Source: a virus. From it: a DNA stretch of 64,000 nucleotides. Below, piece by piece: positions 14,094-40,262 of the stretch. The stretch's first letter is position 1. Every line of letters begins with the position of its first letter. A program made the translations under genes and the position numbers. Where the stretch lies: positions 54,288 through 118,287 of IMG/VR virus record IMGVR_UViG_3300033146_002242; one strand, 5' to 3'. The notes beneath the pieces are model-generated. The model did not search any database. It was not told where the DNA came from and saw only the letters and a list, made by a program, of their open reading frames with translations.

Positions 14094-14104
14094 GGGAGTC
14101 ATTT

Positions 14105-15676: not shown

Positions 15677-15710
15677 AAGTCATTTTTTTGAAATTTAGGA
15701 GAACACAAAA

Positions 15711-15773: not shown

Positions 15774-15801
15774 CGATGGAAATAAATTTAGGAGAATTAT
15801 C

Positions 15802-16917: not shown

Positions 16918-16937
16918 GTAAATTTTTAATAAAGATG

Positions 16938-16978
16938 GGGGGTAATTATTGTGATAGATAATTACCCCCATTTTTTTA
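16938..16978 (+). terminator. intrinsic terminator
   Basis: GGGGGTAATTAT at 16938-16949 pairs with ATAATTACCCCC at 16958-16969 over an 8-base loop, followed by ATTTTTTT. It lies directly after the acidic core gene. Confidence 0.85.
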
Positions 16979-16999
16979 TTTAAGGGTGGCTATATAAAG

Positions 17000-17461: not shown

Positions 17462-17479
17462 ATAAGGGAGTTAATTAAG

Positions 17480-17881: not shown

Positions 17882-18302
17882 TAATTATTGGTTATATATT
17901 TGTATTGTTATTATTTTGGAAATAAACGTATATACAATTATATCTATTTTTAATAAAAAAAATAATTTAAATTATTCTATTGAAAGACTAAAAATTTTTG
18001 AAAAATATGAAACTTTATTGGCTTTATATACTGAGAAAGCATACCAAGTAATATACAAAGATCATATTATGGTATATTCTGTAGAAGGAATGTCACCAAA
18101 AGAAGAAGATATTGTTGAAATTCAAAAATTATATTTATCATTATTATTAGAAATAATGGGACCTAAATTAGTAAATGAAATGTTGAATTATTATGGCAAT
18201 GATGATGCATTGTATAAAAATGCATTGATTTATTTTGATTCAGAATATGAAAATGATGCTATAAAAAAATCTGCTATTGATAGACAATTATCTCAAGATT
18301 AA
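17871..18302 (+). CDS. hypothetical protein with N-terminal membrane segment, 143 aa
   Basis: Two start codons are adjacent (17871 and 17874), inside the end of the previous gene. Residues 7-28 are strongly hydrophobic (YICIVIILEINVYTIISIF), an anchor-like segment. The rest is soluble and helical. A membrane anchor within a head cluster could serve membrane-associated prohead assembly, as in T4, but this is inference. Confidence 0.55.
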   Translation: MMIDNYWLYICIVIILEINVYTIISIFNKKNNLNYSIERLKIFEKYETLLALYTEKAYQVIYKDHIMVYSVEGMSPKEEDIVEIQKLYLSLLLEIMGPKLVNEMLNYYGNDDALYKNALIYFDSEYENDAIKKSAIDRQLSQD

Positions 18303-18304
18303 AA

Positions 18305-18547
18305 ATGAACATACAAGAATTTTTAGATATTATACAAGAATCAAAAAAAACATCGAGGCGAGTTGTTACTTATTCAAGAAAAACAAAAATTAAACGTGCA
18401 ACAGGCCAGATGTCAACAGCATTAGCAAGAAAGAAAAATGATCCAATGTATAAACGAATGATTTATCATAAAAAGCAATATCTAAAATTACGAGATGCAT
18501 TACATAGAAGATATGCATCGAAAGTCCGACAACGGGCCAGAAGATAA
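18305..18547 (+). CDS. small basic internal head protein with targeting peptide, 80 aa
   Basis: The start lies two bases after the previous stop. The N terminus MNIQEFLDIIQE|SKK resembles the T4 internal-protein targeting peptide, with IQE at residues 10-12 as a gp21-type cleavage site. The remainder is extremely basic (RRRYASKVRQRARR-like tail), suited to binding packaged DNA. T4 gp67/gp68 and the internal proteins are the nearest analogues by position and composition, not by proven homology. Confidence 0.6.
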   Translation: MNIQEFLDIIQESKKTSRRVVTYSRKTKIKRATGQMSTALARKKNDPMYKRMIYHKKQYLKLRDALHRRYASKVRQRARR

Positions 18548-18561
18548 GGAATTTATATAAT

Positions 18562-20469: not shown

Positions 20470-21081
20470 ATGATTGATTTAGCAGCTAAAATTAAATATA
20501 TTTTAGAACAACAAAAACCAAAAGAAGATGAAGAAATACCAGATGATCAAATGGATGCACCGCCTAGTGAAGATGAAACTATGCAACCCACTGATAATAC
20601 TGATAATACTGAACCTGTAGAAAATCAAGAACCAATTGAACAGCCACAGCCAGATGAACAACAAATGGGTGATCCAAATCAACAATATGGTGGTGGTATG
20701 GGTGGTGAACAACCAATGTCACCAGATATGGGTGATATGAATGATCCTATGGAAGGACCATCCTTAGAACAAATAGGCAGAAGTTTTGAATTAAAAAGAA
20801 TATATGATAGATTATTATCTATTAGAACACATTTATCTATTTTTGTTGAAGATGAATTCGATGAATTAAAAAAAACAATATCAAAAGCTATTGATTTATT
20901 TGATTTAATGATAAGTAATTATAAACAATATGAAGATAAAATTGATGATATTATTTTATTATATTATAATTTTATTAATGAAATATATGAAATAGCTAAG
21001 AAGAAATATAGAAAATATACTAGAGATAAAAAAAGTCAAAAATCGCCTTTTGAATCAAATATAGATAACGAATTTAAATAA
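20470..21081 (+). CDS. head-core/scaffold-type protein, 203 aa
   Basis: The start abuts the portal stop. Residues 1-13 read MIDLAAKIKYILE, ending in a possible (I)LE cleavage site. Residues 15-95 are Pro, Gln, Asp and Met-rich and disordered. Residues 100-195 are helical and Lys-rich. This mix of cleavable peptide, disordered part and helical part fits a prohead core component, but no family is recognised. Confidence 0.55.
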   Translation: MIDLAAKIKYILEQQKPKEDEEIPDDQMDAPPSEDETMQPTDNTDNTEPVENQEPIEQPQPDEQQMGDPNQQYGGGMGGEQPMSPDMGDMNDPMEGPSLEQIGRSFELKRIYDRLLSIRTHLSIFVEDEFDELKKTISKAIDLFDLMISNYKQYEDKIDDIILLYYNFINEIYEIAKKKYRKYTRDKKSQKSPFESNIDNEFK

Positions 21082-21084
21082 AAA

Positions 21085-21717
21085 ATGATAGAATTTTCTG
21101 ATGCAAAGCAGTATTTGCGGTATCCTGGTTTTCGATTTATGAATACTAAAGGGCCGTATTATATTGTATATATGAGTGAAAGTTCTGATTTTATGAAAGA
21201 TAAACCACGATTGAATTTATATTTTTTAGATTTTAAAGATATTATTATTAGAAATACTGTTTTTCCTAGGACTTATTTAACAGGAAGAATGATACAGGAA
21301 TACCGTGAATCAAATTTAATTGCACATAAAAAAAAGAAACAAATTAATAAACAAAAAAATATTATATATGAACCTAATATTTTTTTTGATAAAATTGACA
21401 AAGAATATGAAGAATACCATACATATCGAAATCATAAAAATGGAAAGTTGGTATATAATGAAATTAGGAAAGCCTTTAGTAATATAAGAGGATATCGAAA
21501 AATATTTTTATATGCAGTTGATGTTGATAAATGTAAAAAAGTATATCAAAATAGAAAAATATTTTTGTTTTTTGATGATTTAAAAAATAAAAATATTTAT
21601 TTTGATGATATGATAATGGTTTTATTTAAAAATAATAAAACTATATATAAAATTCTTATTAAAAATAAAGAATATAATTATAATAGAATTTATGAATATA
21701 TTCGATATTTAAAATAA
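21085..21717 (+). CDS. paralogue of the RNA polymerase beta N-terminal domain, 210 aa
   Basis: The entire protein aligns by eye with the first ~210 residues of the RNA polymerase beta gene at 36135. Both begin MI.F..AK.Y with GFRF a few residues on, share SE.S.F.KD, and later NRKIFLF followed by ILIKN.EY near the end. No catalytic residues are evident. Its place between portal and protease suggests a head or portal-bound role. A shared domain could bring the polymerase to the same partner, for example for packaging into the virion; this is inference. Confidence 0.7.
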   Translation: MIEFSDAKQYLRYPGFRFMNTKGPYYIVYMSESSDFMKDKPRLNLYFLDFKDIIIRNTVFPRTYLTGRMIQEYRESNLIAHKKKKQINKQKNIIYEPNIFFDKIDKEYEEYHTYRNHKNGKLVYNEIRKAFSNIRGYRKIFLYAVDVDKCKKVYQNRKIFLFFDDLKNKNIYFDDMIMVLFKNNKTIYKILIKNKEYNYNRIYEYIRYLK

Positions 21718-21731
21718 TTGGAGTATTAATT

Positions 21732-22418
21732 ATGTCAAAATTTATTATAGAACAAGCAATTATACAAGAAGCAGAAATTGTTAAAACTGATGATAAAAAA
21801 AATAAAGCTATATTTAGGTGTATTATTCAAACAGCAGATGAACCTAATAAAAATAGGCGGGTATACCCAAGATCTGTATTAGAACAAGGTATGAATGATT
21901 GTAAAGAAAGAATGAAAGCAAGAGCTTTTTTAAGTGAATTAGACCATCCAATTCCATCTGGTAATAGACAATTTGATGCTATTAGACAAACATCAGTAAT
22001 GTTAGATGAAGTATGTCATATGATTACTGATTATCAATTTGAAGGGAATTTATTAAAAGCTGAAATGGAAACAACCTTAACACCCAAAGGATATATTTTA
22101 TATGGTCTTTTAAAAGATAGATCTGGTATAGGATTTTCTATGAGAGGTATGGGTGATTTGCAAATGGTGGCTGGTTATAAAAGTGTAAAATCACCTTTGA
22201 CTATTATATGTTATGATGCAGTTTCAAGACCATCTCATAAAGCAGCTGTGGTTGATTTTAATAATATGAAATTTGAATCTGAACAATTGTGTAATTTAAA
22301 TACTTTAACTGAATCAGATAATGGTTTAATTTGTTGTGGTAATCAATGTTATTTACCAAATTATTTTGATAAATTAGTCGAATCAAGATTAATTAAATTT
22401 TTTGATAAATGGGTGTAA
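21732..22418 (+). CDS. prohead core protease, T4 gp21-like, 228 aa
   Basis: TTGGAGTATTAAT lies before the ATG. The herpesvirus/T4-type serine protease layout is visible: NRRVYPRSVL (about 39-48), the histidine in SELDHP (about 70-75), the serine in GFSMRG (about 134-139), and DAVSRPSHKAA (about 160). The N terminus itself has IIE|Q and IQE|A sites (residues 5-8 and 11-14), fitting self-processing. It would cleave the core proteins and the capsid N terminus during maturation. The gene sits between the portal and capsid genes, as in T4. Confidence 0.85.
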   Translation: MSKFIIEQAIIQEAEIVKTDDKKNKAIFRCIIQTADEPNKNRRVYPRSVLEQGMNDCKERMKARAFLSELDHPIPSGNRQFDAIRQTSVMLDEVCHMITDYQFEGNLLKAEMETTLTPKGYILYGLLKDRSGIGFSMRGMGDLQMVAGYKSVKSPLTIICYDAVSRPSHKAAVVDFNNMKFESEQLCNLNTLTESDNGLICCGNQCYLPNYFDKLVESRLIKFFDKWV

Positions 22419-22443
22419 AATAAATTAGTCAAGGAGAATTGAA

Positions 22444-22743
22444 ATGGAAGTAAGAATAGCTAGTCAAGTGGCTGAATTTAATAAAAGTTTAGATGATAAA
22501 TACAGATTAAAAGAAATAATCAGAGAAATACATGATGTGTGCATATCTGATATTCATTTTCAAAATGATCAACTTCAAAAAATTATTGATGATTTAGAAA
22601 AATCAAAAGAAGCTATCAAATCAAAAAAGATTGTTTTAAATGAATCAATTAAAGCTGTTGATGAAATAAAAAAACGAAATACACAATTAGAAATTTTTAT
22701 AGATGAAACAAGGGAAAAATTATTAGAAGATTTAATGGGATAA
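22444..22743 (+). CDS. coiled-coil head-cluster protein, 99 aa
   Basis: AAGGAGAATTGAA precedes the ATG. The sequence is almost entirely helical with heptad-like Leu/Ile spacing (LQKIIDDLEKSKEAIKSKK). It follows the protease, where T4 has the gp22 scaffold, and could be part of the scaffold. No homology is visible. Confidence 0.55.
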   Translation: MEVRIASQVAEFNKSLDDKYRLKEIIREIHDVCISDIHFQNDQLQKIIDDLEKSKEAIKSKKIVLNESIKAVDEIKKRNTQLEIFIDETREKLLEDLMG

Positions 22744-22757
22744 ACGAGGATTAGATT

Positions 22758-23177
22758 ATGATAACCAAAATAACGAATATTAGTGATGTTAATTTATATG
22801 TTGTCGACCCAATAAAAGCAAAAGAGAATCTTGCAACAAATATTATTTCTTTAATGGGACCAATGGTAGATGAAACTATTAGAGAAAGAAAAGAAAATTT
22901 AAAAAAGAATAATCGTCAATTAAAAATGATAGTAAATAATATTGATGAAATGAAAGAGCAATTACAGAATTTAGTTAATAAGTACAAAAGATTAAAATTA
23001 AAAAAATCTTTATTAGAAATTATTGATAAATTAATTTCATCTGGTCTTATTTATCAGAGTACATTAACAGTCGAAGTTAAACAAATTTTGATGAATATTG
23101 ATAAATTGAAAGAAAAAGAATTAACAATATATTATAAAAAATTATCTCTTGTGTTAGATAAGGAGTCTAACACTTAA
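22758..23177 (+). CDS. coiled-coil head-cluster protein, 139 aa
   Basis: AACGAGGATTAG lies upstream. After a short N-terminal region, residues 40-139 are Lys/Glu/Leu-rich and predicted coiled coil. It resembles its upstream neighbour in composition. A scaffold role is suggested by position only. A strong terminator follows. Confidence 0.55.
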   Translation: MITKITNISDVNLYVVDPIKAKENLATNIISLMGPMVDETIRERKENLKKNNRQLKMIVNNIDEMKEQLQNLVNKYKRLKLKKSLLEIIDKLISSGLIYQSTLTVEVKQILMNIDKLKEKELTIYYKKLSLVLDKESNT

Positions 23178-23223
23178 AGATGGTATGCTTTAATATCATC
23201 TCCATTTTCTCTCCTTTCTCCTT

Positions 23224-23263
23224 ATCTCCCCCTTTTGATAGGTGTCAGTCAAAAGGGGGAGAT
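23224..23263 (+). terminator. 15-bp hairpin, probable terminator
   Basis: ATCTCCCCCTTTTGA (23224-23238) pairs perfectly with 23249-23263. The T-rich tail is weak (ATCTTTGTT). It closes the portal-protease block. Confidence 0.7.
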
Positions 23264-23358
23264 ATCTTTGTTATTGTAAAATCATATCTTTGCTATATAT
23301 ATCAATAATTGTTATGAGTATTTTATATATTATTTTATAAACAAAAAAGGGGGTTATA

Positions 23359-23679
23359 ATGGATGATAGTGAAAGATGGTATTATATAAAAAAAGGTAGA
23401 AGATATGAACGAGTTGAGATGTGGTGTGGATTTCCAACTGATGGAGTCTGGATTGTAAAAAATGCACCGGGTGTAAAATCATCTAGACTTATGTTGCAAT
23501 TAACATCTGATCCATATCATATACATGACATAATTAATAAAGCAATTACAAAAGATAAAATTGCTGAATTAGTTATAGATGTTTTTTCAAGAAAAGTAGA
23601 AAAAGCAAGATCCGTGGCAGATATAGCTGATGAAGTAGGGGAGAAAATATGGGATGCTTTGCAAGAGGAGAATAATTGA
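23359..23679 (+). CDS. hypothetical protein, 106 aa
   Basis: AAAAAAGGGGGTTATA supplies the binding site. The N-terminal half reads GVWIVKNAPGVKSSRLMLQL, a compact beta pattern I associate with small phage accessory proteins. The C-terminal half is helical (SVADIADEVGEKIWDAL). Its stop overlaps the Thg1-like start (TGATG), so the two are coupled. Confidence 0.6.
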   Translation: MDDSERWYYIKKGRRYERVEMWCGFPTDGVWIVKNAPGVKSSRLMLQLTSDPYHIHDIINKAITKDKIAELVIDVFSRKVEKARSVADIADEVGEKIWDALQEENN

Positions 23680-24413
23680 TGACAAGTTTGGGAGATAGAA
23701 TGAAAGGGTATGAGAAAACTTTTTCTCATAAATTAATGAAACGAAACCCAATTATTATTAGATTAGATGGTAAAGCGTTTCATACTTTTACAAATTATTT
23801 AAAAAAGCCATTTGATTATCGTTTTATTATCAGAATGATAATGGCTGCAAAAAACACATGTAATCAAATACAAGGGTTTAAATGTGCTTATGTACAAAGT
23901 GATGAAATTTCTATATTGTGTACTGATTATGATAAATTAGAAACAGAAGGATGGTTTGATTACAAAATTCAAAAAATAGCTTCTATTTCAGCTGCATTTA
24001 TGTCGGTTGAATTTATAAATAATGATTTTATAAGAAATGTTATACAAAAATACCATATTAATAATTTACCTGTTTTTGATTCAAGAGTATTTTCAATCCC
24101 AAAAGATGAAGTTGTTAATTATTTTTTATGGAGATCTAGAGATTGGAAAAGAAATAGTATTCAAATGTATGCAAGAAAATTTTTTTCACATAAGGAATTG
24201 CAAAAAAAGAAACAGGAGGATATACATGAGATGTTACATAAAATAGGAAAAAATTGGACAACTGATTTATCAAATACTATTAAAAATGGAACATTTTTTA
24301 AAAAATATGATAACATAGAAGAAAATCAAACATATCGTTCTAAATATTATACTTCTAATATAGTTATGCCAACATATGAGTCAATATCTATTTTTATGGA
24401 AGGTTTGTTTTAA
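23679..24413 (+). CDS. Thg1-like 3'-5' polymerase, 244 aa
   Basis: The ATG at 23679 is used; GAGGAG lies upstream, and the start overlaps the previous stop. The Thg1 fold motifs are present: IRLDGKAFHTFTN (about 26-38, first metal Asp), YVQSDEISIL (about 70-79, second acidic pair) and NYFLWRSRDWKRNSIQ (about 147). Thg1-like proteins add nucleotides to the 5' end of tRNA, for tRNA-His G-1 or 5'-end repair. With nine tRNAs in the window and a tRNA-Arg 230 bases downstream, tRNA repair is the likely role. Confidence 0.85.
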   Translation: MTSLGDRMKGYEKTFSHKLMKRNPIIIRLDGKAFHTFTNYLKKPFDYRFIIRMIMAAKNTCNQIQGFKCAYVQSDEISILCTDYDKLETEGWFDYKIQKIASISAAFMSVEFINNDFIRNVIQKYHINNLPVFDSRVFSIPKDEVVNYFLWRSRDWKRNSIQMYARKFFSHKELQKKKQEDIHEMLHKIGKNWTTDLSNTIKNGTFFKKYDNIEENQTYRSKYYTSNIVMPTYESISIFMEGLF

Positions 24414-24434
24414 ATAAAAAGAAGAAAATATAAA

Positions 24435-24623
24435 ATGGATAAAAATTTTGATACATCAAAATTGGGGTTTATTAAATGTTTATTTAAACCTGATTATACT
24501 ACATGTGATAAATGTAATAAATCTCATAAACAATTATATTATAGAAGAATATCATTTGAAGATGGTGAATATTACTGTTATGATTGTATATTAAAAGAAA
24601 AAGAATTATGTGAATTTGAATGA
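24435..24623 (+). CDS. hypothetical zinc-ribbon-like protein, 62 aa
   Basis: A possible binding site (AAGAAG) precedes the ATG. CDKCNKSH and, 20 residues later, CYDC form a likely zinc site, much as in the 78-aa protein at 8047. Co-located with Thg1 and tRNA-Arg. Function unknown. Confidence 0.6.
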   Translation: MDKNFDTSKLGFIKCLFKPDYTTCDKCNKSHKQLYYRRISFEDGEYYCYDCILKEKELCEFE

Positions 24624-24642
24624 AAAGTAGGTAAATAGGTAT

Positions 24643-24719
<77 letters not shown>

Positions 24720-28950: not shown

Positions 28951-31900
28951 ATGAATATTAAGAAATCTCAAGGTAATTGTACTGAATGTGTGTTAACTAA
29001 ATACGAATCTTTATTTCCAAATACAAATTCTAAAAAGAATATTACAAAAGTTGATATTTTATTTGTAATAGATTCGTTTTCAAAAAAAGATTTAAAAAAT
29101 AATAAAATTTTATCAGAACAAGATAATAAAGAATTTTATGAAATTTTTGAAAAATATGGATTGAAGAAATTAAAATATATGATAACTTCATTATCATATT
29201 GTGATTGTAATCATATTGAAGATGAAGAACAATTGGATAAAGTATTTGAATGTTGTAAAGAAAATTTATATCACATGATTGATATTGTCAAACCTAAATT
29301 AATTGTTGCAATGGGTTATAATGTTTGTAAATATTTAAAAATAACAAAACCATCTTTAAATAATATTAATTTATTAAGAGGTAAATTTTTTGAATATAAT
29401 AAATCTAATGTTTTAGCTACAATATCTCATAAAAGTTTGAAAGAAAATAAAAACTATGTTAAATTATTAGATAATGATTTTTATAAAATTGCTGAATATT
29501 TTAATTTAACAAATAATATTCATAAGAAAAATAATACTGGTGCTGATATTAAATTTGTAGGAAAAGGTTTACAGTTTTATAATATTCCTGAAAAATATTA
29601 TACTGAACAATATAGATTAGTTGATATTCAATTTTTATATAAAACATCTGAGGTATTATATATTTTTAGAGATAAAAATAATAATAAAGAATACTATAAA
29701 CATAATGATGATTACTATTTTTATAAATCTTCTAATTCAATTGATAAAAAGATAATCGAACAAGATAACGCTTCTGCTTTTATTACTTCTTGGAAGAATA
29801 GATATGATATTGAACCAGACACAACATATGAAGCTGATGTTCGATTACCTATCAAACACGCGATTGATTATGGTATTAAAAATAAAGAAGATTGTTTTGT
29901 TGATTATTTAAATAATTGGTTTTTTGATATTGAATTAGATATGAAAAATACAGAAGCTTTTCCTTCTATTGAGGATGCTAAATTTCCAATCAATATGATT
30001 TCAGTATCTTTTAATGGAAATAATATTATTTACATATTAGATAATAAAACCAAGCCAATAGAAAAAGATGATAAAAATTATGAATATAAAATTTTTGATA
30101 AAGAAATTCCCTTATTAAAAGAATTTATTAATGACTTCAAAAATGCAGATCCTGATACAATTTCAGGTTGGAATACAAATACATTTGACTTACCATATTT
30201 GTATTTTAGATTAAAAAGATTAAATATTGAACCAAGTACATTATCAAAATTTGGTGTATTTGATGTGGATATGCAATGGGGGAGGGTGACTATTGCAGGG
30301 GTAGCTTGTGTTGACCAATTAGAAATTTATAAATTATTTGAATTTGGTAAAAAACCAAGTTATAAATTAGATAGTATTGCGAATTATGAATTGGGAGTTA
30401 AAAAAATTGAATTAGGAGAATCTATTAGTACAATCTATAATACAGATATTAATAAACTTATTCGATACAATATTCGTGATACAGATTTATTGGTTCAATT
30501 AGAAGATAAAATTGGACAAATTAATTTAGTTCACGAAATTAGAAAAGTTTGTTCATCAACAATTTCTGCTATCATGTCAACTTTTGGGCAAGTTGATCCT
30601 TTGATGATTTCTTTTATGAAGAAAAAAGGTTTTGTTGTTAAAAATGCAATTAGAACTGGAAAAGAAAAATTAGTAGGTGCGTTTGTCAAGGAACCAAATC
30701 CGGGTATATATAAATGGTTTGTTGATTTTGATTTCACTTCACTTTATCCAAGTATAATTCGGACATATAATATTGGGGTTAATACATTTGTTTTTAGATT
30801 TATAGATCCACATTTAGGATATGATATAACTTATAATCCAGATAATTTACCAGATGAAATTCCTATTATTTTTGATCCTAACTATAAAGCAAAAGAAACA
30901 ATTGTAAAGAAAGAAAAATTATTAGAACGCATTAAAGAAATGAATTTGGTGTGGACAATTAATGGTTGTTTTTATTTAAATCACAAAGATGAGATATCTG
31001 AACTAAGTGAAATTTTGGATTATTTAATGTCATCAAGAAAAGTATATAAAGATAAGAAATTTGAGGCAAAGGTAAATAAAGATGATTTAATGACTCGTGT
31101 ATATGATACACGGCAATTAGTATATAAAGTTTTAGCTAATAGTTTTTATGGTGTTATTGCAAATGAAAATTTTAGATTTTTTAATATTCATTCTGCTGGC
31201 GCTATTACTGCATCTGGTCAAGAAGCGATTAAAACTTGTGTTATAAATGCACATAATAAAATAGAATCAATGTATGAAGAATCTGATTTTATTCAACCGA
31301 ATATTTTATCTAAAAAAGAAATGTATAGTGATACTTTAGATAAATCAAGAAATACTGATAATGTTATTACAAGTGACACAGATTCTATTTTTTGTTGTTT
31401 TGAAAAATTTGAAAAAACTTCAATGGAAGATATTAGAAAATATTGTGATGAAATACAAACTTTTTTAAATACAGAAGTGATTATAGAATTGTTAAAAAAA
31501 CATAATCATTTTAATAATGAATTCAATTTTCTTAATATGAAAAATGAATTGATTTGTAAAAAAGGTTTATTTGTTTCAAAGAAACATTATGTTATTCATG
31601 TTATTGAACAAGAAGGTAAAAAAGTTGATGATATTGTACATGTGGGAATTGACACCAAACGGTCTGATATTTCTGAAAAAACAAAAGAATTTTTAAATGA
31701 GTTGATTAATATTATTTTTGATGATGATAATATCACAATTAAAAAATTAGTTAATCATATTAAAATGAAAGAAATCGAATTTATTGAATTGTTGAAAAAA
31801 GGTGATAAAACATTAGCTAAGTCAGTTTCATTTACTAAAGATATATCTAAATATAAACGTACAATTCCACAACATATAAATGCTATGTTAAATTGGAATA

Positions 31901-32196
31901 CCCTTGTTTATGAATCTTTTCAAGTTGGTGATAGGGGCAATTTATTTAATATTACGGGTATTGATGAAACAATTGCACCACCAGAAATTGTTCAAAAATA
32001 TCATACACATTTTTTGAAAAAAGGTAGAAAATTAGAAGTAATTGCTGTACCTGAAACAGAACCGTGTTTACCAAAATATTTTATAGTAAATATTAAAGAA
32101 ATGATGCGGGTTGGATTTCATGATAGATATGATATTTTATTAAAACCGATTTTAAAAGTTCAACAACAAACTAAAAATAAAGTTTTAACATTTTAA
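28951..32196 (+). CDS. family B DNA polymerase with N-terminal UDG-like domain, 1081 aa
   Basis: TAGGAGGGTTGT precedes the ATG. Residues 1-180 resemble a uracil-DNA-glycosylase fold: CTECVLTKY at the start, MITSLSYC, VKPKLIVAMGYNVCKYL (about 111-127) and VLATISHKS (about 150). The expected catalytic motifs are altered, so activity is doubtful. The polymerase follows: exonuclease FDIE (about 325), GWNTNTFDLPY (about 405), YNIRDTDLL (about 506), motif A DFTSLYPS (about 594), motif B KVLANSFYG (about 725) and motif C TSDTDSIF (about 806). It is T4 gp43-like and should be the replicative enzyme. The gene is followed at once by thyX. Confidence 0.9.
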   Translation: MNIKKSQGNCTECVLTKYESLFPNTNSKKNITKVDILFVIDSFSKKDLKNNKILSEQDNKEFYEIFEKYGLKKLKYMITSLSYCDCNHIEDEEQLDKVFECCKENLYHMIDIVKPKLIVAMGYNVCKYLKITKPSLNNINLLRGKFFEYNKSNVLATISHKSLKENKNYVKLLDNDFYKIAEYFNLTNNIHKKNNTGADIKFVGKGLQFYNIPEKYYTEQYRLVDIQFLYKTSEVLYIFRDKNNNKEYYKHNDDYYFYKSSNSIDKKIIEQDNASAFITSWKNRYDIEPDTTYEADVRLPIKHAIDYGIKNKEDCFVDYLNNWFFDIELDMKNTEAFPSIEDAKFPINMISVSFNGNNIIYILDNKTKPIEKDDKNYEYKIFDKEIPLLKEFINDFKNADPDTISGWNTNTFDLPYLYFRLKRLNIEPSTLSKFGVFDVDMQWGRVTIAGVACVDQLEIYKLFEFGKKPSYKLDSIANYELGVKKIELGESISTIYNTDINKLIRYNIRDTDLLVQLEDKIGQINLVHEIRKVCSSTISAIMSTFGQVDPLMISFMKKKGFVVKNAIRTGKEKLVGAFVKEPNPGIYKWFVDFDFTSLYPSIIRTYNIGVNTFVFRFIDPHLGYDITYNPDNLPDEIPIIFDPNYKAKETIVKKEKLLERIKEMNLVWTINGCFYLNHKDEISELSEILDYLMSSRKVYKDKKFEAKVNKDDLMTRVYDTRQLVYKVLANSFYGVIANENFRFFNIHSAGAITASGQEAIKTCVINAHNKIESMYEESDFIQPNILSKKEMYSDTLDKSRNTDNVITSDTDSIFCCFEKFEKTSMEDIRKYCDEIQTFLNTEVIIELLKKHNHFNNEFNFLNMKNELICKKGLFVSKKHYVIHVIEQEGKKVDDIVHVGIDTKRSDISEKTKEFLNELINIIFDDDNITIKKLVNHIKMKEIEFIELLKKGDKTLAKSVSFTKDISKYKRTIPQHINAMLNWNTLVYESFQVGDRGNLFNITGIDETIAPPEIVQKYHTHFLKKGRKLEVIAVPETEPCLPKYFIVNIKEMMRVGFHDRYDILLKPILKVQQQTKNKVLTF

Positions 32197-32206
32197 GGAG
32201 ATTAAA

Positions 32207-32854
32207 ATGGTTGTAGATGTCGAAATTTTAGATTTCAACGAAACTGATATGATTAATAAAGTGGCATTAGCCTGTTATACATGCACACATTCTGATTTAT
32301 CAAAATTTGTTGATTTAACACTTGATGAAAAAAAGCAATTAATTAAACGAGTTGTATCAAGAGGGCATTTATCTGTTTTAAGACATGCTAATTTTACTAT
32401 TGCTATAATTGGTGGATCCAGAGCTATGACCCATCAACTTGTTCGACACCAAGCTGGATTTAATTTTTCACAACAATCATTGAGATACACTAAAATAAAT
32501 GAAGAAAATGATGATTTTTATAATTTACCAGAAATATTGAAAAAAAGTAGATACAGTAAAAATATTGAAAATGTATTACATGAAATTAAATCATTGTATA
32601 TTGAATTAATTAATGATGGTATAAAAGCTGAGGATGCTAGATATATATTACCAATAGGCACAAAATCAAATATTATTGTAACTGCTAATGGAGAATCATT
32701 ATATAATTTATTTAAATCAAGATGTTGTTCTAGGGCACAATTAGAAATTAGAAAAATAACTCAAACTATTCAAAAATATATGGAAGAAAATTTTCCTTAT
32801 ATGTTTTTTAACACAGGGCCAGATTGTAAAAATTGTAAGGAAAAATGTAAATAA
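32207..32854 (+). CDS. thyX: flavin-dependent thymidylate synthase
   Basis: AAGGAGATTAAA precedes the ATG, 11 bases after the polymerase gene. The ThyX signature RHQxGFxFSQQSLRY is present at about residues 79-93, with RGHLSVLRHANFT upstream and a C-terminal SRCCSRAQLEIR segment that binds dUMP in the family. ThyX makes dTMP from dUMP with FAD, NADPH and methylene-tetrahydrofolate. At 215 residues it has the usual length. It would supply thymidine for an AT-rich genome. Confidence 0.93.
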   Translation: MVVDVEILDFNETDMINKVALACYTCTHSDLSKFVDLTLDEKKQLIKRVVSRGHLSVLRHANFTIAIIGGSRAMTHQLVRHQAGFNFSQQSLRYTKINEENDDFYNLPEILKKSRYSKNIENVLHEIKSLYIELINDGIKAEDARYILPIGTKSNIIVTANGESLYNLFKSRCCSRAQLEIRKITQTIQKYMEENFPYMFFNTGPDCKNCKEKCK

Positions 32855-32904
32855 ACAAGGAACATATAATTGATACATATTTTATTAGAAGGAGATTATA
32901 TTAA

Positions 32905-33555
32905 ATGAAGTCGATTAGATTAATTGAGTGTATGTCTACTTGGCAAGGAGAAGGGCCGGATACAGGCAGATATATGGTATTATGCCGATTTAAAAAATGT
33001 CAATTAAATTGTTCGTTTTGTGATACAATGGTATTAATGAAAAATGCTGTTGAAGGTGAATATACGTTTGATAGTATTCAGTCAAAAATAAATTCTGTTA
33101 ATGGTGGGTTATTGATTACAGGTGGTGAACCAACTTTATATTTAGATGAAACTGCTAGCTTATTAACAGAATTAGAATATTCAGTGGCTAATGTAGAAAC
33201 CAATGGTCATAAATTAAAAGAATTAATTTTACAAACACCTAAACATTTAAATGTTAAATTCATTTATTCCCCAAAAATATCATTAAATGATGATGAAGTT
33301 AAATCTTTTATTAATAATGAGAAAATTTATTTTAAATTTGTTATTGATAAATACGATGGTGCTGGCCCAACTATTACAACTAGATCATTAAATAAATTAC
33401 AAATTATGGGTTTTGATATGAGTCATGTTTATTTAATGCCAAAAGGTATTAATTATGGTGAATTAAAACAAAATTCAAAAACAGTTTGTGATTTAGCAGA
33501 ATATTATAATTGTAATATTTCAACTAGGATGCATTTAATTTATAATTTTTATTAG
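32905..33555 (+). CDS. queE: QueE-like 7-carboxy-7-deazaguanine synthase
   Basis: AAGGAGATTATATTAA precedes the ATG. GEGPDTGRYMVLCRFKKC leads into the radical SAM cluster C32-x3-C36-x2-C39 followed by DT, as in QueE. TGGEPTLY (about 72) and the ETNG segment (about 97) follow in order. QueE converts carboxy-tetrahydropterin to CDG on the way to preQ0. With QueD (48829) and the DpdA-like protein (12681) it points to deazaguanine synthesis. FolE and QueC are not in the window. Confidence 0.88.
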   Translation: MKSIRLIECMSTWQGEGPDTGRYMVLCRFKKCQLNCSFCDTMVLMKNAVEGEYTFDSIQSKINSVNGGLLITGGEPTLYLDETASLLTELEYSVANVETNGHKLKELILQTPKHLNVKFIYSPKISLNDDEVKSFINNEKIYFKFVIDKYDGAGPTITTRSLNKLQIMGFDMSHVYLMPKGINYGELKQNSKTVCDLAEYYNCNISTRMHLIYNFY

Positions 33556-33570
33556 AAAAGGAGAGTCGAA

Positions 33571-33882
33571 ATGGAAAAACCTGTTGTAGAGGCATTAGAA
33601 ACAAGAGTTGCCGGAATTCCATTTGAAATTGCTGTACAAACTGCAAGTGGCATTATATGTGATCCACAACAATTGCCACAAGCATATGTAAAAGTTTTAT
33701 CAGTTGGCCCCGAGGTTAAAGGTATTAAGGTAGGAGATATTATTATGGGTCCGAAACATGGTGGACAAACAGTTGTGCATCAAGGAACCATATATAGAAT
33801 ATATGATAAAAATGAAATTTTTGGTATTTTAAATGATGACAATATCAAAATTGATGAAAAACCAATTCTCCATACAGTTTAA
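33571..33882 (+). CDS. GroES-like co-chaperonin, 103 aa
   Basis: AAAGGAGAGTCGAA precedes the ATG. The pattern YVKVLSVGPEVKGIKVGDII followed by HGGQ and IYRIYDKNEIFGIL is that of the Cpn10 fold; length and layout recall T4 gp31. The mobile-loop region (VAGIPFEIAVQ) is divergent. Phage co-chaperonins pair with host GroEL to fold the major capsid protein. No GroEL is visible here. A hairpin terminator follows. Confidence 0.8.
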   Translation: MEKPVVEALETRVAGIPFEIAVQTASGIICDPQQLPQAYVKVLSVGPEVKGIKVGDIIMGPKHGGQTVVHQGTIYRIYDKNEIFGILNDDNIKIDEKPILHTV

Positions 33883-33886: not shown

Positions 33887-33935
33887 AAAAAATGGATGTG
33901 GCATATATTTTATTAATGTGGCACATCCATTTTTT
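33887..33935 (+). terminator. 14-bp hairpin, terminator
   Basis: AAAAAATGGATGTG (33887-33900) pairs with CACATCCATTTTTT (33922-33935). The A- and T-rich arm ends give a T-run on both strands. Confidence 0.75.
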
Positions 33936-33947
33936 CACATATTTATT

Positions 33948-34112
33948 ATGAAAAAAATATTAGCACCTTTTATTATTTTTGGTTATTGTATAGGATTGAT
34001 AGTAACAATTTTATTTTGTTTAATATTATCCATATTTACAATTCCTTTTAAATATTTATCTAAATTATATTTTCAATATAAATTTAAAATGAATAAGGTA
34101 AAAAATGAATAA
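33948..34112 (+). CDS. small membrane protein, 54 aa
   Basis: ATG at 33948 begins MKKILAPFIIFGYC, one long hydrophobic segment (residues 5-32) followed by a basic tail. No good binding site is present. Its end overlaps the start of the beta-prime fragment by eight bases (ATGAATAA), so it may couple to it. Function unknown. Confidence 0.45.
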   Translation: MKKILAPFIIFGYCIGLIVTILFCLILSIFTIPFKYLSKLYFQYKFKMNKVKNE

Positions 34113-36138
34113 AAATATTGAATTGATTCCAGTATCAGAAATAAAAATAGAATATGACCCATCTATGACAACTGCATATGATTTTACTGTAGAAGATTAT
34201 TTTACTTTTTGTACAGATGATGGTATTTTTGTACAGGATTCAATGTCAATTATACATCCTCTTTCTGATGAATCACAAGAAGAAATCAGAGAGAAAATGA
34301 ACTCTCCAAAATCTTTAAAATCATTAGATGGTTCAACTACATCATTATCAAAGGATATGTATGTTGGATTATATATTTTAACAAAACCAAAAAAGAAAAA
34401 ATCATCTCCAATTATTATCACAAGTCCAGAGCAATTAAATGATATAACAGACCCATATATTTTAGTTAAATTTAGAGGGCATGTTTGTACCGCAGGATTT
34501 GCAATATATAATTCATGTTTTCCAAGAGATTTTGAATTTCAAACAAAACAAGCAACAAAATCAGAATTAAATCGAGTCACAACAATTTGTTTAGAAAAAT
34601 ATGATAAAAATATTTTTAATGAAATTTTAGATAGATTATGTAAAATAGGATTTAAATGGGCTACAATAGCTGGATCCAGTTTTACTTTAAAAAATTTAGA
34701 TGTTCCACCAGAAATTGAAAAACTAAAAAAAGAAATGGTTGGGAAGGATCCTGAAACTGTATCAGCTTTATTAAATAAAGCTCAAAAAATAATTGAAAAA
34801 TATTTACACGATACTGGGTTAGGTGATATTATTGAAAGTGGATGTGCAAAAGGATATGGGCAATCCATGCAAATTTTGGTGGCAAAGGGATTGATTTCAT
34901 CTATGGAAGGTGGAATTTTACCCGGTATAGGTACATCATTTATCGATGGATTGCCTCCAGATATATTTTTTACAGCCGGTAGTGGTGCTAGACATGGAAT
35001 GGTTGGTAGAGCAATTAATACTGCTGACACAGGTTATTTGGCGAGAAAATTAGTTTATTTTTTAAACAGTGTGGAACTTCATCCTTCATTAGCTGATTGT
35101 AAAACAAATCGTACTTTAAAATTATCTATTATAGATAATAAACAAATCCAAAAATTAAAATTTAGATTTATTGAAAAAAACGGTAAAATAATTCCAATTG
35201 AACAAGCGGGTGTTAAAATTGGGGATGTTATTAATTTGAGATCACCAATTTTTTGTAAATCGCAAAAAATTTGTCATACTTGTCATGGAAAATCTTTTTT
35301 ACGTAAAGCTACACCATATATAGGTGTGACATATGGGCTGATATTAGGTGAGTCAGCAACACAAGCATCAATGGAAAAATTTCATACTGGCGGTGCTATT
35401 AAAATTAAAAAGAAAAACTTGGTTAATGATTTAATATCAAATGTACCTGTTTTGAATAAATCTATAATAAATCAATTTTTTACAACATCAGAAAATTCAT
35501 TAATTACCAAACAAGATTGTAAATTAGAAATTGATGTTGTTGATCTAAAAATGTCTGATGATGGTGATTATTATTATAATGAAGATAGTAAAAAATTGGT
35601 ATTTAAAAATTTAATTTCTACATATACATCTGGAACAACAACATTTCCTGTATTATTTGATTATGTTACTGAATTTGATATTGTTCATGTTATAAATCAA
35701 AATAAAGAAAAAATTGTATTAGAATTTATTAAAGGTGATGTTTTATTAATATCCCCATTAGAAGATACTGAGATGACAGAACTATCACGTTATTTAGATA
35801 GACTGATTGGTGGTAGAATTAAATTTTTTGATGTAGAACATTTGTTTTCAAAAATATATCAACAATATAAAGATTTATCACCTTTACCAATGGTATCGTA
35901 TGAAGTATTATTATCGCAAATTTTAAGATATAAAAAGGATCCTCAATATCCAGCTAGATTAGCTAAAGAATGGGATCCTATTTTATTAAATATGCGTAAA
36001 ACTATTTTTAATGAAGGTTTTATTCAGGGACTTGCTTTTGAAAATATAAATGAAGCAATTAGATCTGGATTAACTAAGAATACAGATGATAATTTGAATA
36101 TTCTGGAAAAAGTATTTACCGGAGAACAATTAAAATGA
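34105..36138 (+). CDS. RNA polymerase beta-prime, C-terminal part, led by a C-intein-like segment, 677 aa
   Basis: From residue 46 the protein follows bacterial RpoC just after the catalytic NADFDGD motif: HPLSDESQEEI (for VPLxxEAQxEA), DMYVGLYILT, GARHGMVGR (about 293), a zinc site CxxxxxxCHTCHG (about 387-397) and GESATQASMEKFHTGG (about 415), the bridge-helix/trigger-loop region. The DFDGD triad itself is missing. Residues 1-45 instead read like an intein C terminus: AYDFTVEDYFTFCTDDGIF then VQD|S. The gene has its own start, so this looks like the C half of a split intein. The N half of beta-prime must lie elsewhere. The last four bases overlap the beta gene. Confidence 0.85.
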   Translation: MNKNIELIPVSEIKIEYDPSMTTAYDFTVEDYFTFCTDDGIFVQDSMSIIHPLSDESQEEIREKMNSPKSLKSLDGSTTSLSKDMYVGLYILTKPKKKKSSPIIITSPEQLNDITDPYILVKFRGHVCTAGFAIYNSCFPRDFEFQTKQATKSELNRVTTICLEKYDKNIFNEILDRLCKIGFKWATIAGSSFTLKNLDVPPEIEKLKKEMVGKDPETVSALLNKAQKIIEKYLHDTGLGDIIESGCAKGYGQSMQILVAKGLISSMEGGILPGIGTSFIDGLPPDIFFTAGSGARHGMVGRAINTADTGYLARKLVYFLNSVELHPSLADCKTNRTLKLSIIDNKQIQKLKFRFIEKNGKIIPIEQAGVKIGDVINLRSPIFCKSQKICHTCHGKSFLRKATPYIGVTYGLILGESATQASMEKFHTGGAIKIKKKNLVNDLISNVPVLNKSIINQFFTTSENSLITKQDCKLEIDVVDLKMSDDGDYYYNEDSKKLVFKNLISTYTSGTTTFPVLFDYVTEFDIVHVINQNKEKIVLEFIKGDVLLISPLEDTEMTELSRYLDRLIGGRIKFFDVEHLFSKIYQQYKDLSPLPMVSYEVLLSQILRYKKDPQYPARLAKEWDPILLNMRKTIFNEGFIQGLAFENINEAIRSGLTKNTDDNLNILEKVFTGEQLK

Positions 36139-39100
36139 TATCTTTTGATAACGCAAAAATATATAAAATATATAATGGGTTTAGATTTTATCAGCATCCT
36201 AAAAATCCATATTTTATTACATATTTATCTGAAAATTCATCTTTTTTAAAAGATTATCATAATTTAAATATTTCCAGAATTGATGTAAAAAATATAGTCA
36301 TGCCTATAACAAAAATACCAAGATCATATCCTTCTTCACAAGATAGGCAATTATATAAAAAATATAAATTATATTTATCATCCCCTAGAAAATTACCAAC
36401 TGGAAAAAATGTTATTTTTGATATATCTAAATATTTGTATTTGATTGATAGTACATATAAACCAATGACATATCGGCAAAAAGCTGGTAAAATGATTCAA
36501 AATATTGTTAGAGATGCATTTTATCAAGTACCTTCTAATTATGAAAAAATTCTGATGTATTCAGTTAGAGTTGATAAAGATTTTAATCCTAGTTATATTA
36601 ATAGAAAGATTTTTTTATTTTTAGAAGAAATACATGATAATAATTTTCCATATGATCATTTTATTTTATGTTTAATTTCTGAAAACAATGTATATTATCG
36701 TATTCTGATTAAAAACAGAGAATATTTTTTTAATAGATTGAAACAATATATTAAAAATATTAGAGAAATTGATGTTGAAAAAGAAAGTGAAGAAAATGAA
36801 GAACGTGAAAAATTATCACAAGATATTATAAAGAAAATTACTAACAATATTGAACCTAAAAATAAAGACGTTATAAAAAATGTATTAGCTGATTTTATTG
36901 AACAACATCCAGAAGAAGTAGAAAAAATTGTTAAAGATGATGTAGAAAATAATAAATCAGTGTCAGCATCAACAGCATATGATTTGGTATCAATAGCCAT
37001 TTTAGTTCAGAATAATAGAAATATAGAGAAATCGAAAAAAATAGTTCAAAACACTAATAAAAATCCTCTTGAAAAATTCAAAAAAATTGAAAAACAATTT
37101 GTTGATGAAATAATACCTATTCAAAAACCAACTGTTGATAATGATAGTGTTTTATATGAAAAAGTTAAAATAGCTGATTCAGTAGATAATATAGGACCAG
37201 ATCATATTTTTGAAAAACGTAAAAAAGATTTTACACAAAATCTTAAAAAAGATATTGCTTTAACTTTTAAAAGTTTAGATAATAGAGATGTGCCATTAAA
37301 AATACAATCTGTTAAATTTGAAAATTCACCTGACCAGTCACATAATTTAAATAAATCAGATATAACTGTAGCAGTAATTACACTTTTTGATAAAAAAGGA
37401 AAAAATCATACTGTTAGAATACAAATACCAAAAATTAATAAAGATGGTACATTTTTTATTAATGGTAAACGGAAGTGTTTAATTAATCAAATTTATCAAT
37501 TACCTATTCAATTTCCAAAACCATTTGAAGCTAAATTTGAAAGTTCATATTCAATGTTTTATATTTATAGTAAACATTTGGCAAAGGTAAATTATTTACA
37601 AATTTTTATGGGTACTTATAAATTACCACTGTCTATTGTTATGTTTTATGGTTTTGGATTTGATATTGTTCTAAAAAAGTTTGATATTAAGTATATGGTA
37701 CAAGATGAAGCACCACCTAAAGATACCAAATATGTTTTAAAAATTGATGGGAAATATTATATTTTTCATAATATTCATAAAGAAGTACAGATTCAATTTA
37801 TTAATTCATTGTTACGTGAAGATTTGAATGGAATAGCGAATGATTCTATTGAATTATTTTCTAAAGCATTTTTTAGTAAATTTATAATTAAAGATACTGG
37901 CCGTGTTAATTCAGTATATTTAATTCAAAATAACTTTGATAATATTGTTGATAATATTTCTAAAAGTATTTTGGCTTCTAAAGGTTATCCAACTAAACTA
38001 GCAGATATTATGTATTATATGTCTGTTGGGGCGGTAGAAGGATATACTATAAAAAGAAATGATTTAGATAATCAAAGAATTAGAAGTTCTGAAATTATTT
38101 CCCATTTATTACAGAAAGAAGTTTTGACAGCATATACTATTTATAAAGAAAAATATTTAGCAGGAAATGAAGATGCTAAATTTGAAATGGCTGAAACAAA
38201 ATTGTTATCTGAATTTAGTATGGCTGAAATTGTTGCTAATATGGAATATGCTAATCCAATTGAAGAATTATCTGTTATGACAAGGGTCAGCCCAATTGGT
38301 AAAAATATTGGTGGTGTTCCAAATAAAGATACTATTACTTTAGAAGGTAGAAGTTTACATAAAACATATTTTGGTAATATAGATCCTGTTGATACACCAG
38401 AAGGGCCAGGTGTTGGTGTGACACAACATTTAGCTATCGGTGCGGCTATTTCTACTTCTAGAGGATTATTTTCTGAGCAAAAAGATGCTATGAAAAAACC
38501 AACTACTACAATTTCAACAACAACTGCAATGATACCATTTATGCAAAATAATGATGGTAATAGAGTCATGTTTGGTTCTGGTCAAATGAAACAAGCAGTT
38601 CCGTTAAAAAATCCAGAACCACCTATTGTTCAAACTGGTTATGAATCTATTTTAACTCATAATTTATCTGATAATTTTATTAAAAGATCTGAATGTAGTG
38701 GAAAAGTTTTAAAGATAACAGATTCACAAATTTTCATTCAATGTAAAGATAGTAAAAAAATTGAAAAAATTGATTTAACACCTGTTCATTTATCATCTGG
38801 TTCTGGTAGAGATACTTTAAGTGAATTTAATGTAGTTGTTAAAGAAGGGCAAACAGTAAAACAAAATCAAAGAATAGCCGAAGGTGCATCTATAAAAGAT
38901 GGTTTTCTTTCATTAGGAAGAAATTTATGTGCAGCTTTTATGTCATGGAAAGGGTATAATTTTGAAGATGGGATTGTTGTAAACGAATCAGTTATTAAAA
39001 ATGAAAAATTAAAATCTTTGCATGGTATGGTGGAAGAAGTTCAATTATCAAAAAAAGATAAAATTTTAGATATAATTAAGATTGGTACACATACTAAGCA

Positions 39101-40262
39101 TGGAGATGTTTTATTAAAAAAATCTATTGGTGATTTAGATGAATTATTGGGAATTGATGATAGTGATGATGAAGATTTATTAACTGATTTTGCTGATGGT
39201 AAAATGATAAAAAAATCACCCGGTGGTGTTATAGCAAATATAGAAATTTTTTCAAATGATAAACCAGATAAATTTCCTGAATATGTACAAGAAATAATTA
39301 AAAAAACAAATAAAAGATATGGTAATCCAAAATTATCATATCGAAATAAAAAAGGACCTATTCAAGGAACTTTGATTAAATTTTATATTAATCAAGAAAT
39401 GAATCTGATGCACGGCGATAAAATGACAAATCGACATGGTGCAAAAGGTGTTATATCATTAATTGAAAAAGAAGAAAATATGCCTTTAACACCGTGGGGC
39501 GATAAAGTTGAAATTATTCTAAATCCGGTTGGTGTTATCAATAGAATGAATGTTGGTCAATTATTAGAAATGAATATGGGACTTGTTTCTAAAGTTTTAG
39601 CTTTACAAATTTTAAAAAATAAAAACAGTAAATCAACGGTAATTAAAATTATTAAAAATGTATTAAAATTAATTGATAAAACTAATAAACAAGTAATTGT
39701 ATCATCAATAATATCAACCTTAAATGCAATGAGTAGTACTAAATATAAACAATTTATTGAAGAATTAGAATCATATACATTTTTTCCTATTATTATTCCA
39801 CCTTATAAATCTCCTAAAATTGAAGATATTTATAAAGTTTATTCATATTTAAAATTACCAAAAACTTATCATTTATATTTACCAGAATATAAATCAAAAA
39901 CAATTGAGGATGTTGCAGTTGGTTATATTTATTATGAAAAATTAGAACACATAGGTAATTTAAAATTACATAGTAGAAGTACAGGTCCTGTTATAGCTAA
40001 AACAGGTCAACCAACAGCTGGGAAAAGGAAAGGTGGCGGTGTACGTGTTGGTGAATCAGATGTTTATGCATTATTAGCCCATAATAGTACAACTGTTGTT
40101 AATGAATTGTTTGGGGCAATGTCTGATGGGGCACAGTCTAAAAACGAAGAAATTTCCAACATATTAATGAATGGGCATACTAAATATGTTCATCAAAAAT
40201 CATCACCAACTGGTAATTTATTAAGAGCTTATTTAGTTGCTATGATGATTGAAAAGGGATAA
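36135..40262 (+). CDS. RNA polymerase beta subunit with extra N-terminal domain, 1375 aa
   Basis: The start overlaps the beta-prime stop (ATGA). Residues 1-210 form a domain shared with the head-cluster protein at 21085. A charged linker follows (210-330). The bacterial RpoB core comes next: DPVDTPEGPGVG (about 751), GQMKQAVPL (about 816), WKGYNFEDGIVVNES (about 937), GDKMTNRHGAKGVIS (about 1093), NPVGVINRMNVGQ (about 1135) and GKRKGGGVRVGESDVYAL near the C terminus. With beta-prime it should form a phage multisubunit polymerase. No alpha or omega equivalents are recognised here. Confidence 0.92.
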   Translation: MISFDNAKIYKIYNGFRFYQHPKNPYFITYLSENSSFLKDYHNLNISRIDVKNIVMPITKIPRSYPSSQDRQLYKKYKLYLSSPRKLPTGKNVIFDISKYLYLIDSTYKPMTYRQKAGKMIQNIVRDAFYQVPSNYEKILMYSVRVDKDFNPSYINRKIFLFLEEIHDNNFPYDHFILCLISENNVYYRILIKNREYFFNRLKQYIKNIREIDVEKESEENEEREKLSQDIIKKITNNIEPKNKDVIKNVLADFIEQHPEEVEKIVKDDVENNKSVSASTAYDLVSIAILVQNNRNIEKSKKIVQNTNKNPLEKFKKIEKQFVDEIIPIQKPTVDNDSVLYEKVKIADSVDNIGPDHIFEKRKKDFTQNLKKDIALTFKSLDNRDVPLKIQSVKFENSPDQSHNLNKSDITVAVITLFDKKGKNHTVRIQIPKINKDGTFFINGKRKCLINQIYQLPIQFPKPFEAKFESSYSMFYIYSKHLAKVNYLQIFMGTYKLPLSIVMFYGFGFDIVLKKFDIKYMVQDEAPPKDTKYVLKIDGKYYIFHNIHKEVQIQFINSLLREDLNGIANDSIELFSKAFFSKFIIKDTGRVNSVYLIQNNFDNIVDNISKSILASKGYPTKLADIMYYMSVGAVEGYTIKRNDLDNQRIRSSEIISHLLQKEVLTAYTIYKEKYLAGNEDAKFEMAETKLLSEFSMAEIVANMEYANPIEELSVMTRVSPIGKNIGGVPNKDTITLEGRSLHKTYFGNIDPVDTPEGPGVGVTQHLAIGAAISTSRGLFSEQKDAMKKPTTTISTTTAMIPFMQNNDGNRVMFGSGQMKQAVPLKNPEPPIVQTGYESILTHNLSDNFIKRSECSGKVLKITDSQIFIQCKDSKKIEKIDLTPVHLSSGSGRDTLSEFNVVVKEGQTVKQNQRIAEGASIKDGFLSLGRNLCAAFMSWKGYNFEDGIVVNESVIKNEKLKSLHGMVEEVQLSKKDKILDIIKIGTHTKHGDVLLKKSIGDLDELLGIDDSDDEDLLTDFADGKMIKKSPGGVIANIEIFSNDKPDKFPEYVQEIIKKTNKRYGNPKLSYRNKKGPIQGTLIKFYINQEMNLMHGDKMTNRHGAKGVISLIEKEENMPLTPWGDKVEIILNPVGVINRMNVGQLLEMNMGLVSKVLALQILKNKNSKSTVIKIIKNVLKLIDKTNKQVIVSSIISTLNAMSSTKYKQFIEELESYTFFPIIIPPYKSPKIEDIYKVYSYLKLPKTYHLYLPEYKSKTIEDVAVGYIYYEKLEHIGNLKLHSRSTGPVIAKTGQPTAGKRKGGGVRVGESDVYALLAHNSTTVVNELFGAMSDGAQSKNEEISNILMNGHTKYVHQKSSPTGNLLRAYLVAMMIEKG

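What the first reader, a model, noticed from the sequence alone, without database searches (positions are those of the whole stretch)
34105..34245. Split intein predicted inside the catalytic motif of RNA polymerase beta-prime
Seen: the first 45 residues match an intein C terminus (AYDFTVEDYFTFCTDDGIF, then VQD|S), and residue 46 onward matches RpoC just after NADFDGD. The catalytic triad is absent. The gene has its own start. Inferred: the N half of beta-prime ends in DFDGD plus an N-intein, encoded elsewhere, and the two are trans-spliced. The last intein residue would be Asp rather than Asn, an atypical but described ending.
Basis: partly seen in the sequence, partly recalled or inferred. 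Interest (0 to 1): 0.88.

Follow-up and report, generated by a model that had tools for sequence, protein, structure and literature searches.

The report
Split intein in phage RNA polymerase
This phage carries the largest subunit of its RNA polymerase as two separate genes 77 kb apart, each carrying one half of a self-splicing protein element (a split intein) that should join the halves exactly beside the catalytic residues; the design recurs in several related phages and to my knowledge was not reported for this enzyme.

Summary
Window ORF 34105-36138 starts with a 45-residue intein C terminus (...YDFTVEDYFTFCTDDGIFVQD) followed by RpoC from the residue after NADFDGD. The predicted partner exists in the same 118-kb virus record, outside the window (record 10367-11890, minus strand, 77 kb away): beta-prime 1-378 ending NADFDGD, then a 129-residue N-intein. 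Joined, the exteins give 1010 aa with no gap against intact relatives (31 contigs uninterrupted at the motif). Five further IMG/VR phages carry the same split intein at the same site, four with a putative free-standing homing endonuclease between the halves; others carry contiguous inteins there. All with a visible end terminate in Asp. A family profile matches solved inteins (best E 1.4e-10), and the modelled N-intein matches intein structures. The conserved X-Y-rpoC-rpoB cluster is broken in this phage exactly between the intein halves. Splicing itself is inferred, not shown. 'Fractured gene' split inteins are known; the host gene, the catalytic-motif site, the Asp-ending clade and the dispersal in a phage make this a new variant.

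The parts
34105..34239 (+). C-intein (45 aa): block F YDFTVEDYFTF, block G GIFVQD; last residue Asp45
   Evidence: aligns with C-inteins of five other phages and contiguous inteins at the same site; invariant block F Asp, Gly, Val, terminal Asp
34240..36138 (+). C-extein: RpoC (beta-prime) residues 379-1010, starting with the +1 nucleophile Ser (SMSIIHPLS...)
   Evidence: Pfam Rpb1_5 and Rpb1_3, TIGR02386 2e-36; about 39-42% to intact phage RpoC, contiguous in register with the N-extein
34094..34104 (+). ribosome-binding-site-like stretch and spacer of the C-half gene (aaggtaaaaa before ATG); its start overlaps the end of the preceding 64-aa ORF (33918-34112)
   Evidence: read from sequence; ORF overlap
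36135..40262 (+). rpoB (1375 aa), downstream partner in the conserved X-Y-rpoC-rpoB cluster
   Evidence: Rpb2_6 1.3e-47; synteny. The N-half (beta-prime 1-378 + N-intein 129 aa) lies outside the window at record 10367-11890, minus strand (L001:10367-11890; the window is record 54288-118287)

Best explanation
The phage encodes RNA polymerase beta-prime as two polypeptides joined after translation by a naturally split class-1 intein of oxyester type (Ser1, Ser+1). The N-half protein is beta-prime 1-378 (through NADFDGD) plus a 129-aa N-intein; the C-half protein is a 45-aa C-intein plus beta-prime 379-1010. The two intein pieces should associate and fold into one Hint domain. Ser1 makes the first acyl shift and Ser+1 takes over the N-extein; the intein's terminal Asp then cyclises to release the intein, leaving an uninterrupted ...NADFDGD-SMSIIHPLS... 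chain. The arrangement probably derives from an ordinary fractured gene (N-half, free-standing homing endonuclease, C-half) as still seen in related phages. In this phage no endonuclease is left and a genome rearrangement with its breakpoint between the halves moved them 77 kb apart on opposite strands, which trans-splicing tolerates. Shown here: both halves, the exact register, the intein signature residues and modelled fold, recurrence in other phages, synteny. Inferred: that splicing occurs, its chemistry, and the order of evolutionary steps.
For: Partner ORF found. Exteins join with no gap: the N-extein ends at residue 376 of an intact relative and the C-extein begins at 377 (L014); 1010 aa against 998-1017. 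Family profile (A3) matches solved inteins: MjaTFIIB mini-intein 1.4e-10, PI-PkoII, DnaE, DnaB, RadA; every hit at E<=1e-3 is an intein chain; Pfam Intein_splicing matched by 7 of 8 members, best 1.5e-9. Invariant NX-like His, block B His, block F Asp, terminal Asp. AF2 of the N-intein pLDDT 82.6; Foldseek top ten all inteins, best the Aes123 PolB1 split intein, prob 1.00. Same split intein in G001, G002, G008, G009, G010. Conserved X-Y-rpoC-rpoB order broken in G000 exactly between the halves. No intron in Rfam scan.
Against: No expression, peptide or splicing data. The window phage's own intein scores weakly on Pfam alone (14.7 bits, E 0.028). The terminal residue is Asp rather than Asn, the penultimate His is Gln, and the block F His is missing, all of which can slow splicing. 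The NX-like His is preceded by Glu, where published Ser1 inteins have Arg/Lys. The record is linear and may be incomplete, so an intact second beta-prime elsewhere cannot be excluded.
Confidence: 0.88

Rival explanations
1. The intein halves are genuine but no longer ligate; they only dock the two beta-prime fragments, which work as a non-covalent split subunit as in phiKZ/AR9-type phages.
For: PhiKZ-like phages do run on a beta-prime made of two chains. Asp terminus, Gln in place of the penultimate His and absence of the block F His depart from the best splicing context.
Against: In the phiKZ-like subunits checked the break lies about 55-70 residues after the catalytic motif and carries no intein. 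Here 174 extra residues would sit at the Mg-binding DFDGD loop. Ser1/Cys1, both His, block F Asp and terminal Asp are kept in the inteins at the site, including contiguous ones in rpoC frames that continue into the C-extein.
Confidence: 0.07
2. Assembly artefact: a chimeric contig joins pieces of two phages, and the two halves are not really 77 kb apart in one genome.
For: Among the loci compared, the ancestral order X-Y-rpoC-rpoB is broken in this record only; the record is a metagenome contig.
Against: Both stretches have similar base composition (26% G+C overall; N-half 25.7%, C-half 27.4%). Each half ends in tidy overlaps with its neighbours (N-half stop overlaps the next ATG; C-half ATG overlaps the previous stop), not a mid-gene cut. 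Even if chimeric, the split intein itself stands, since other records show both halves.
Confidence: 0.03
3. The gene is interrupted by a group I or II intron, or by mRNA trans-splicing, rather than by an intein.
For: Group I introns interrupt phage RNAP genes; GenBank annotates AR9_g145 as three exons with endonucleases, one break falling inside the catalytic motif as I read it.
Against: No Rfam intron in the window, in L001 or in the relative L026. The inserted stretches are open frames with intein motifs, profile hits and an intein-like model.
Confidence: 0.01

Closest known systems
Fractured genes with split inteins and free-standing homing endonucleases (Dassa et al. 2009, doi 10.1093/nar/gkp095; text not held, known from citations and memory) and MIJ3 PolB (PMC6892783)
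   Same: Phage gene cut in two at an intein, N-half and C-half each with an intein piece, a putative free-standing endonuclease between them in G002, G008, G009, G010
   Different: Host gene is RNAP beta-prime; the intervening proteins carry DUF7487 repeats; in the window phage no endonuclease remains and the halves are dispersed
Aes123 PolB1 cysteine-less split intein (PDB 9HTH; PMC13014065)
   Same: Ser1 chemistry, similar fragment sizes (120 + 39 aa against 129 + 45), best fold match
   Different: Asn-ended, in a DNA polymerase B; low sequence identity (19%)
Cyanobacterial DnaE split inteins (own knowledge)
   Same: Two halves far apart in the genome, rejoined by trans-splicing, no endonuclease
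   Different: Cellular replicative polymerase, Cys1, Asn-ended
RNA polymerase inteins: Mja rPol A' and A'', RPB2/RPA2/RPC2 (PMC1635734)
   Same: Inteins in multisubunit RNAP at conserved sites
   Different: Contiguous, cellular or eukaryotic-virus; whether Mja rPol A' lies at the NADFDGD site was not tested here
phiKZ/AR9-type phage RNAP with naturally split beta-prime
   Same: Beta-prime in two polypeptides; homologous enzyme
   Different: Break about 55-70 residues after the motif, no intein

Membership tests
Class 1 intein (Hint domain) | Cys/Ser at intein position 1 (block A) | tested here: met
   Ser1 in G000, G002, G003, G008, G009; Cys1 in G010, L117, L119
Class 1 intein (Hint domain) | Block B His and block F Asp | tested here: met
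   H96 and D155 invariant in A3
Class 1 intein (Hint domain) | Penultimate His and terminal Asn (block G) | tested here: not met
   Gln-Asp here, Phe/Trp-Asp in relatives; terminal Asp invariant. Asp/Gln-ended inteins using the same mechanism are accepted members (PMC4031507), so this marks a variant rather than an exclusion
Class 1 intein (Hint domain) | +1 Ser/Thr/Cys on the C-extein | tested here: met
   Ser in G000 and G002, Thr in G001, G003 and G008, Cys in G009
Class 1 intein (Hint domain) | Sequence or fold relation to known inteins | tested here: met
   Profile vs PDB 1.4e-10, all hits at E<=1e-3 inteins; Foldseek top ten inteins, though no E-value reached 0.001 (best 0.009, prob 1.00)
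Ser1 (cysteine-less) inteins | NX-motif His preceded by Arg/Lys (PMC10189870) | tested here: inconclusive
   His72 invariant; preceding residue is Glu in G000 and G002, Lys in G008, Arg in G010, Ile in G009. Equated with NX by its place before block B, not by structure superposition
Split intein | Two separate ORFs, each with one intein piece, exteins rejoining in register | tested here: met
Split intein | Trans-splicing activity | not testable with these tools
   needs expression or mass spectrometry
Fractured gene (Dassa 2009) | Free-standing homing endonuclease gene between the halves | tested here: not met
   No relative of the G001/G002 endonuclease-like ORFs in the window record; putative endonucleases lie between the halves in G002, G008, G009, G010, so the window phage looks like a derived state
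phiKZ-type split beta-prime | Break downstream of the catalytic motif without intein | tested here: not met

The most novel reading that the evidence does not exclude
The split intein acts as an assembly checkpoint. Because the junction lies directly at the Mg-binding NADFDGD loop, the phage polymerase stays inactive until both halves, now on opposite genome arms, are made and ligated; the Asp-ended chemistry kept throughout this clade may have been tuned for timing. The window phage's beta-prime is slightly closer to virion-type subunits, so splicing might have to precede packaging.
Probability: 0.15. Interest if true: 0.85.

Novelty: new variant of a known kind. Interest (0 to 1): 0.72.

Why it matters
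It adds the catalytic subunit of a multisubunit RNA polymerase to the small set of enzymes thought to be assembled by natural protein trans-splicing, at the most conserved residues of the enzyme. It defines a clade of phage inteins that all end in Asp, which makes the unusual C-terminal chemistry testable on natural pairs. The contigs line up as a plausible series (contiguous intein, halves with an endonuclease, endonuclease lost, halves dispersed) and suggest that the element moved between the two phage RNAP paralogues. New Ser1 split inteins could also be useful tools.

Tried and rejected
Single-sequence scans of viral contigs with P0001 and P0002 found nothing; alignment-based scans were needed. 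PDB phmmer with the window's intein alone gave only chance hits, and NCBIfam had no intein hit. INPHARED phages hold RpoC homologues, but none of the listed matches covers the C-intein; the contiguous L135 intein matched only a weak stretch of a Yersinia phage helicase. A scan of bacterial/archaeal genomes for the C-intein found no relative. A pattern scan for NADFDGD + Cys/Ser in those genomes gave ordinary rpoC, chance peptides and two intein-like cases, L170 and L174. Group I/II intron rejected. PhiKZ-type split rejected. The small intein tree has weak support (57-77), so the transfer claim rests on identities and branch lengths, not topology.

Full report
What is in the window. ORF 34105-36138 (+) encodes 677 aa. 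The first 45 (nt 34105-34239) are an intein C terminus; the remaining 632 are RpoC from the residue after NADFDGD to the end. The catalytic motif does not occur in any frame of the window. The window is bases 54288-118287 of a 118,287-bp virus record.

The partner. A Pfam Rpb1_2 search of the record gave one hit, on the minus strand at 10754-11200. The ORF there, 10367-11890, starts at a TTG with a GAGGT stretch upstream and encodes 507 aa: beta-prime 1-378 ending VGGHNADFDGD, then SVLCDCTIYSVDN...DYSEHRNLKMYKI...DFWVSDDHSMIVYD...KISPIDLLQNPENKYIIKYK and a stop. The halves are 77 kb apart on opposite strands.

Register. The predicted product NADFDGD|SMSIIHPLSDESQEE aligns without gap to NADFDGDTVAIHLPLS of Rhizobium phage RHph_Y65 and to a Bacteroides-type RpoC. 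Against IMG/VR relatives (about 39-49% identity) the N-extein ends at the residue before the one where the C-extein begins, and the joined length, 1010 aa, lies within the 998-1017 aa typical of intact genes. In 31 contigs of this RpoC family the motif is uninterrupted (NADFDGD followed by Q, T, A, M or V).

It is an intein. Single-sequence Pfam evidence is weak (Intein_splicing 14.7 bits across both halves). An alignment (A3) of the joined N- and C-pieces with related inteins settles it: the profile matches solved inteins (MjaTFIIB 1.4e-10, PI-PkoII, DnaE, DnaB, RadA), with no non-intein at E<=1e-3; 7 of 8 members hit Intein_splicing, best 1.5e-9. Invariant columns include a His in the place of the NX motif described for Ser1 inteins (PMC10189870), the block B His, the block F Asp, Gly and Val of block G, and the terminal Asp. 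An AlphaFold2 model of the N-intein (pLDDT 82.6) has intein structures as its ten best PDB matches, first the Aes123 PolB1 split intein; E-values are modest (best 0.009), as expected when only part of the domain is present.

Recurrence. The same split intein at the same site occurs in five other IMG/VR records. G001: the contig begins inside the N-intein, then a 54-aa ORF, then the C-half. G002: N-half, 397-aa frame, C-half. G008: N-half, 358-aa frame, C-half; G009: N-half, 377-aa frame, C-half; G010: contig begins at FDGD|C, then a 363-aa ORF, then a C-half with a frameshift. The intervening proteins of G002, G008, G009 and G010 carry DUF7487 repeats; G010 has a weak HNH_3 match and G002 a weak DUF559 match; by eye G008 looks HNH-type. 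They are putative homing endonucleases by architecture and position, as in published fractured genes (PMC6892783, citing Dassa 2009). C-inteins are 58-69% and N-inteins 40-58% identical to the window phage's.

Same site, other forms. Pattern scans for NADFDGD followed by Cys or Ser found contiguous inteins there in L117, L126, L128/L131, L129 and L135 (357-512 aa, read through to the C-extein), and probable ones in L119, L120 and L134. G003 is split at another position: 44 residues of N-intein, a 235-aa frame, then a long C-intein ending NGLFVFD|T. All those with a visible C terminus end in Asp. A review states that Asp- and Gln-ended inteins use the same mechanism with cyclisation of that residue (PMC4031507).

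Mobility. The window phage and G008 belong to one RpoC family, G002 and G009 to another (extein split supported at 100). Window phage and G002 exteins are 29-30% identical, their inteins 51% (N) and 71% (C); tree distance is about 3.3 for exteins against 1.0 for inteins. The element therefore probably moved between the two RNAP paralogues. The intein tree itself is poorly supported.

Dispersal. Nearly all relatives keep the order X-Y-rpoC-rpoB. In the window record X-Y-N-half lies at 10-14 kb (minus) and C-half-rpoB at 88-95 kb (plus), so a rearrangement broke the cluster exactly between the intein halves. Gene junctions on both sides are tidy overlaps and composition is even, which argues against a chimeric contig but does not exclude one.

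Rivals. A group I/II intron is not supported by Rfam. In the phiKZ-like subunits checked the break lies about 55-70 residues after the motif and has no intein. Non-covalent use of unspliced halves is unlikely because 174 residues would remain at the Mg-binding loop, but only experiment can settle it.

Novelty. Nine full-text searches found no report of an intein, split or not, at this site of a phage beta-prime; the library is partial. Known RNAP inteins in the paper read are Mja rPol A' and A'', Nph rPol A'' and those in second-largest subunits (PMC1635734). I file it as a new variant of a known kind.

Noticed in passing
L028 (IMGVR_UViG_3300027896_002037), RpoC ORF from 4828: A 262-aa insertion in the trigger-loop region (FH|C...EHN|SGGAV) with Cys1, HN end and Ser+1 looks like a second intein site in the same RpoC family; no Pfam intein hit.
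   Followed up: partly
L123/L149 (G003, record 30076-33235): RpoC intein split at an atypical position: 44-aa N-intein, 235-aa frame of unknown function, long C-intein ending VFD|T.
   Followed up: partly
L024, L026, L028, L054, L059, L155: In several relatives the last ~220 aa of beta-prime form a separate ORF; in G001 a 297-aa ORF with an endonuclease-like look sits in the gap. In the window phage this part is fused and its tail weakly matches a PHROG called virion structural protein (5.5e-4).
   Followed up: no
L185/L191 (Bacillus phage AR9 g145): As read from the annotated exons, a group I intron in the virion RNAP beta-prime gene interrupts the catalytic motif itself (GGDYD|GDTVSL), so two unlike mobile elements would target the same conserved DNA.
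   Followed up: partly
window 28951-32196: 1081-aa family B DNA polymerase with an N-terminal stretch matching uracil-DNA glycosylase (PF03167, 4.2e-5, just under the cut-off): possible UDG-PolB fusion.
   Followed up: no
window 5197-24716: Eight tRNA genes on the plus strand (Rfam).
   Followed up: no
window 32207-33882: ThyX, a QueE-like (by eye) and a GroES-like gene lie upstream of the C-half, where relatives have X-Y-rpoC(N).
   Followed up: no
L170 (Spirochaetia MAG), L174 (proteobacterial MAG): RpoC-like ORFs in MAG contigs with intein-like insertions after NADFDGD[S/C]; possibly binned phage contigs.
   Followed up: no
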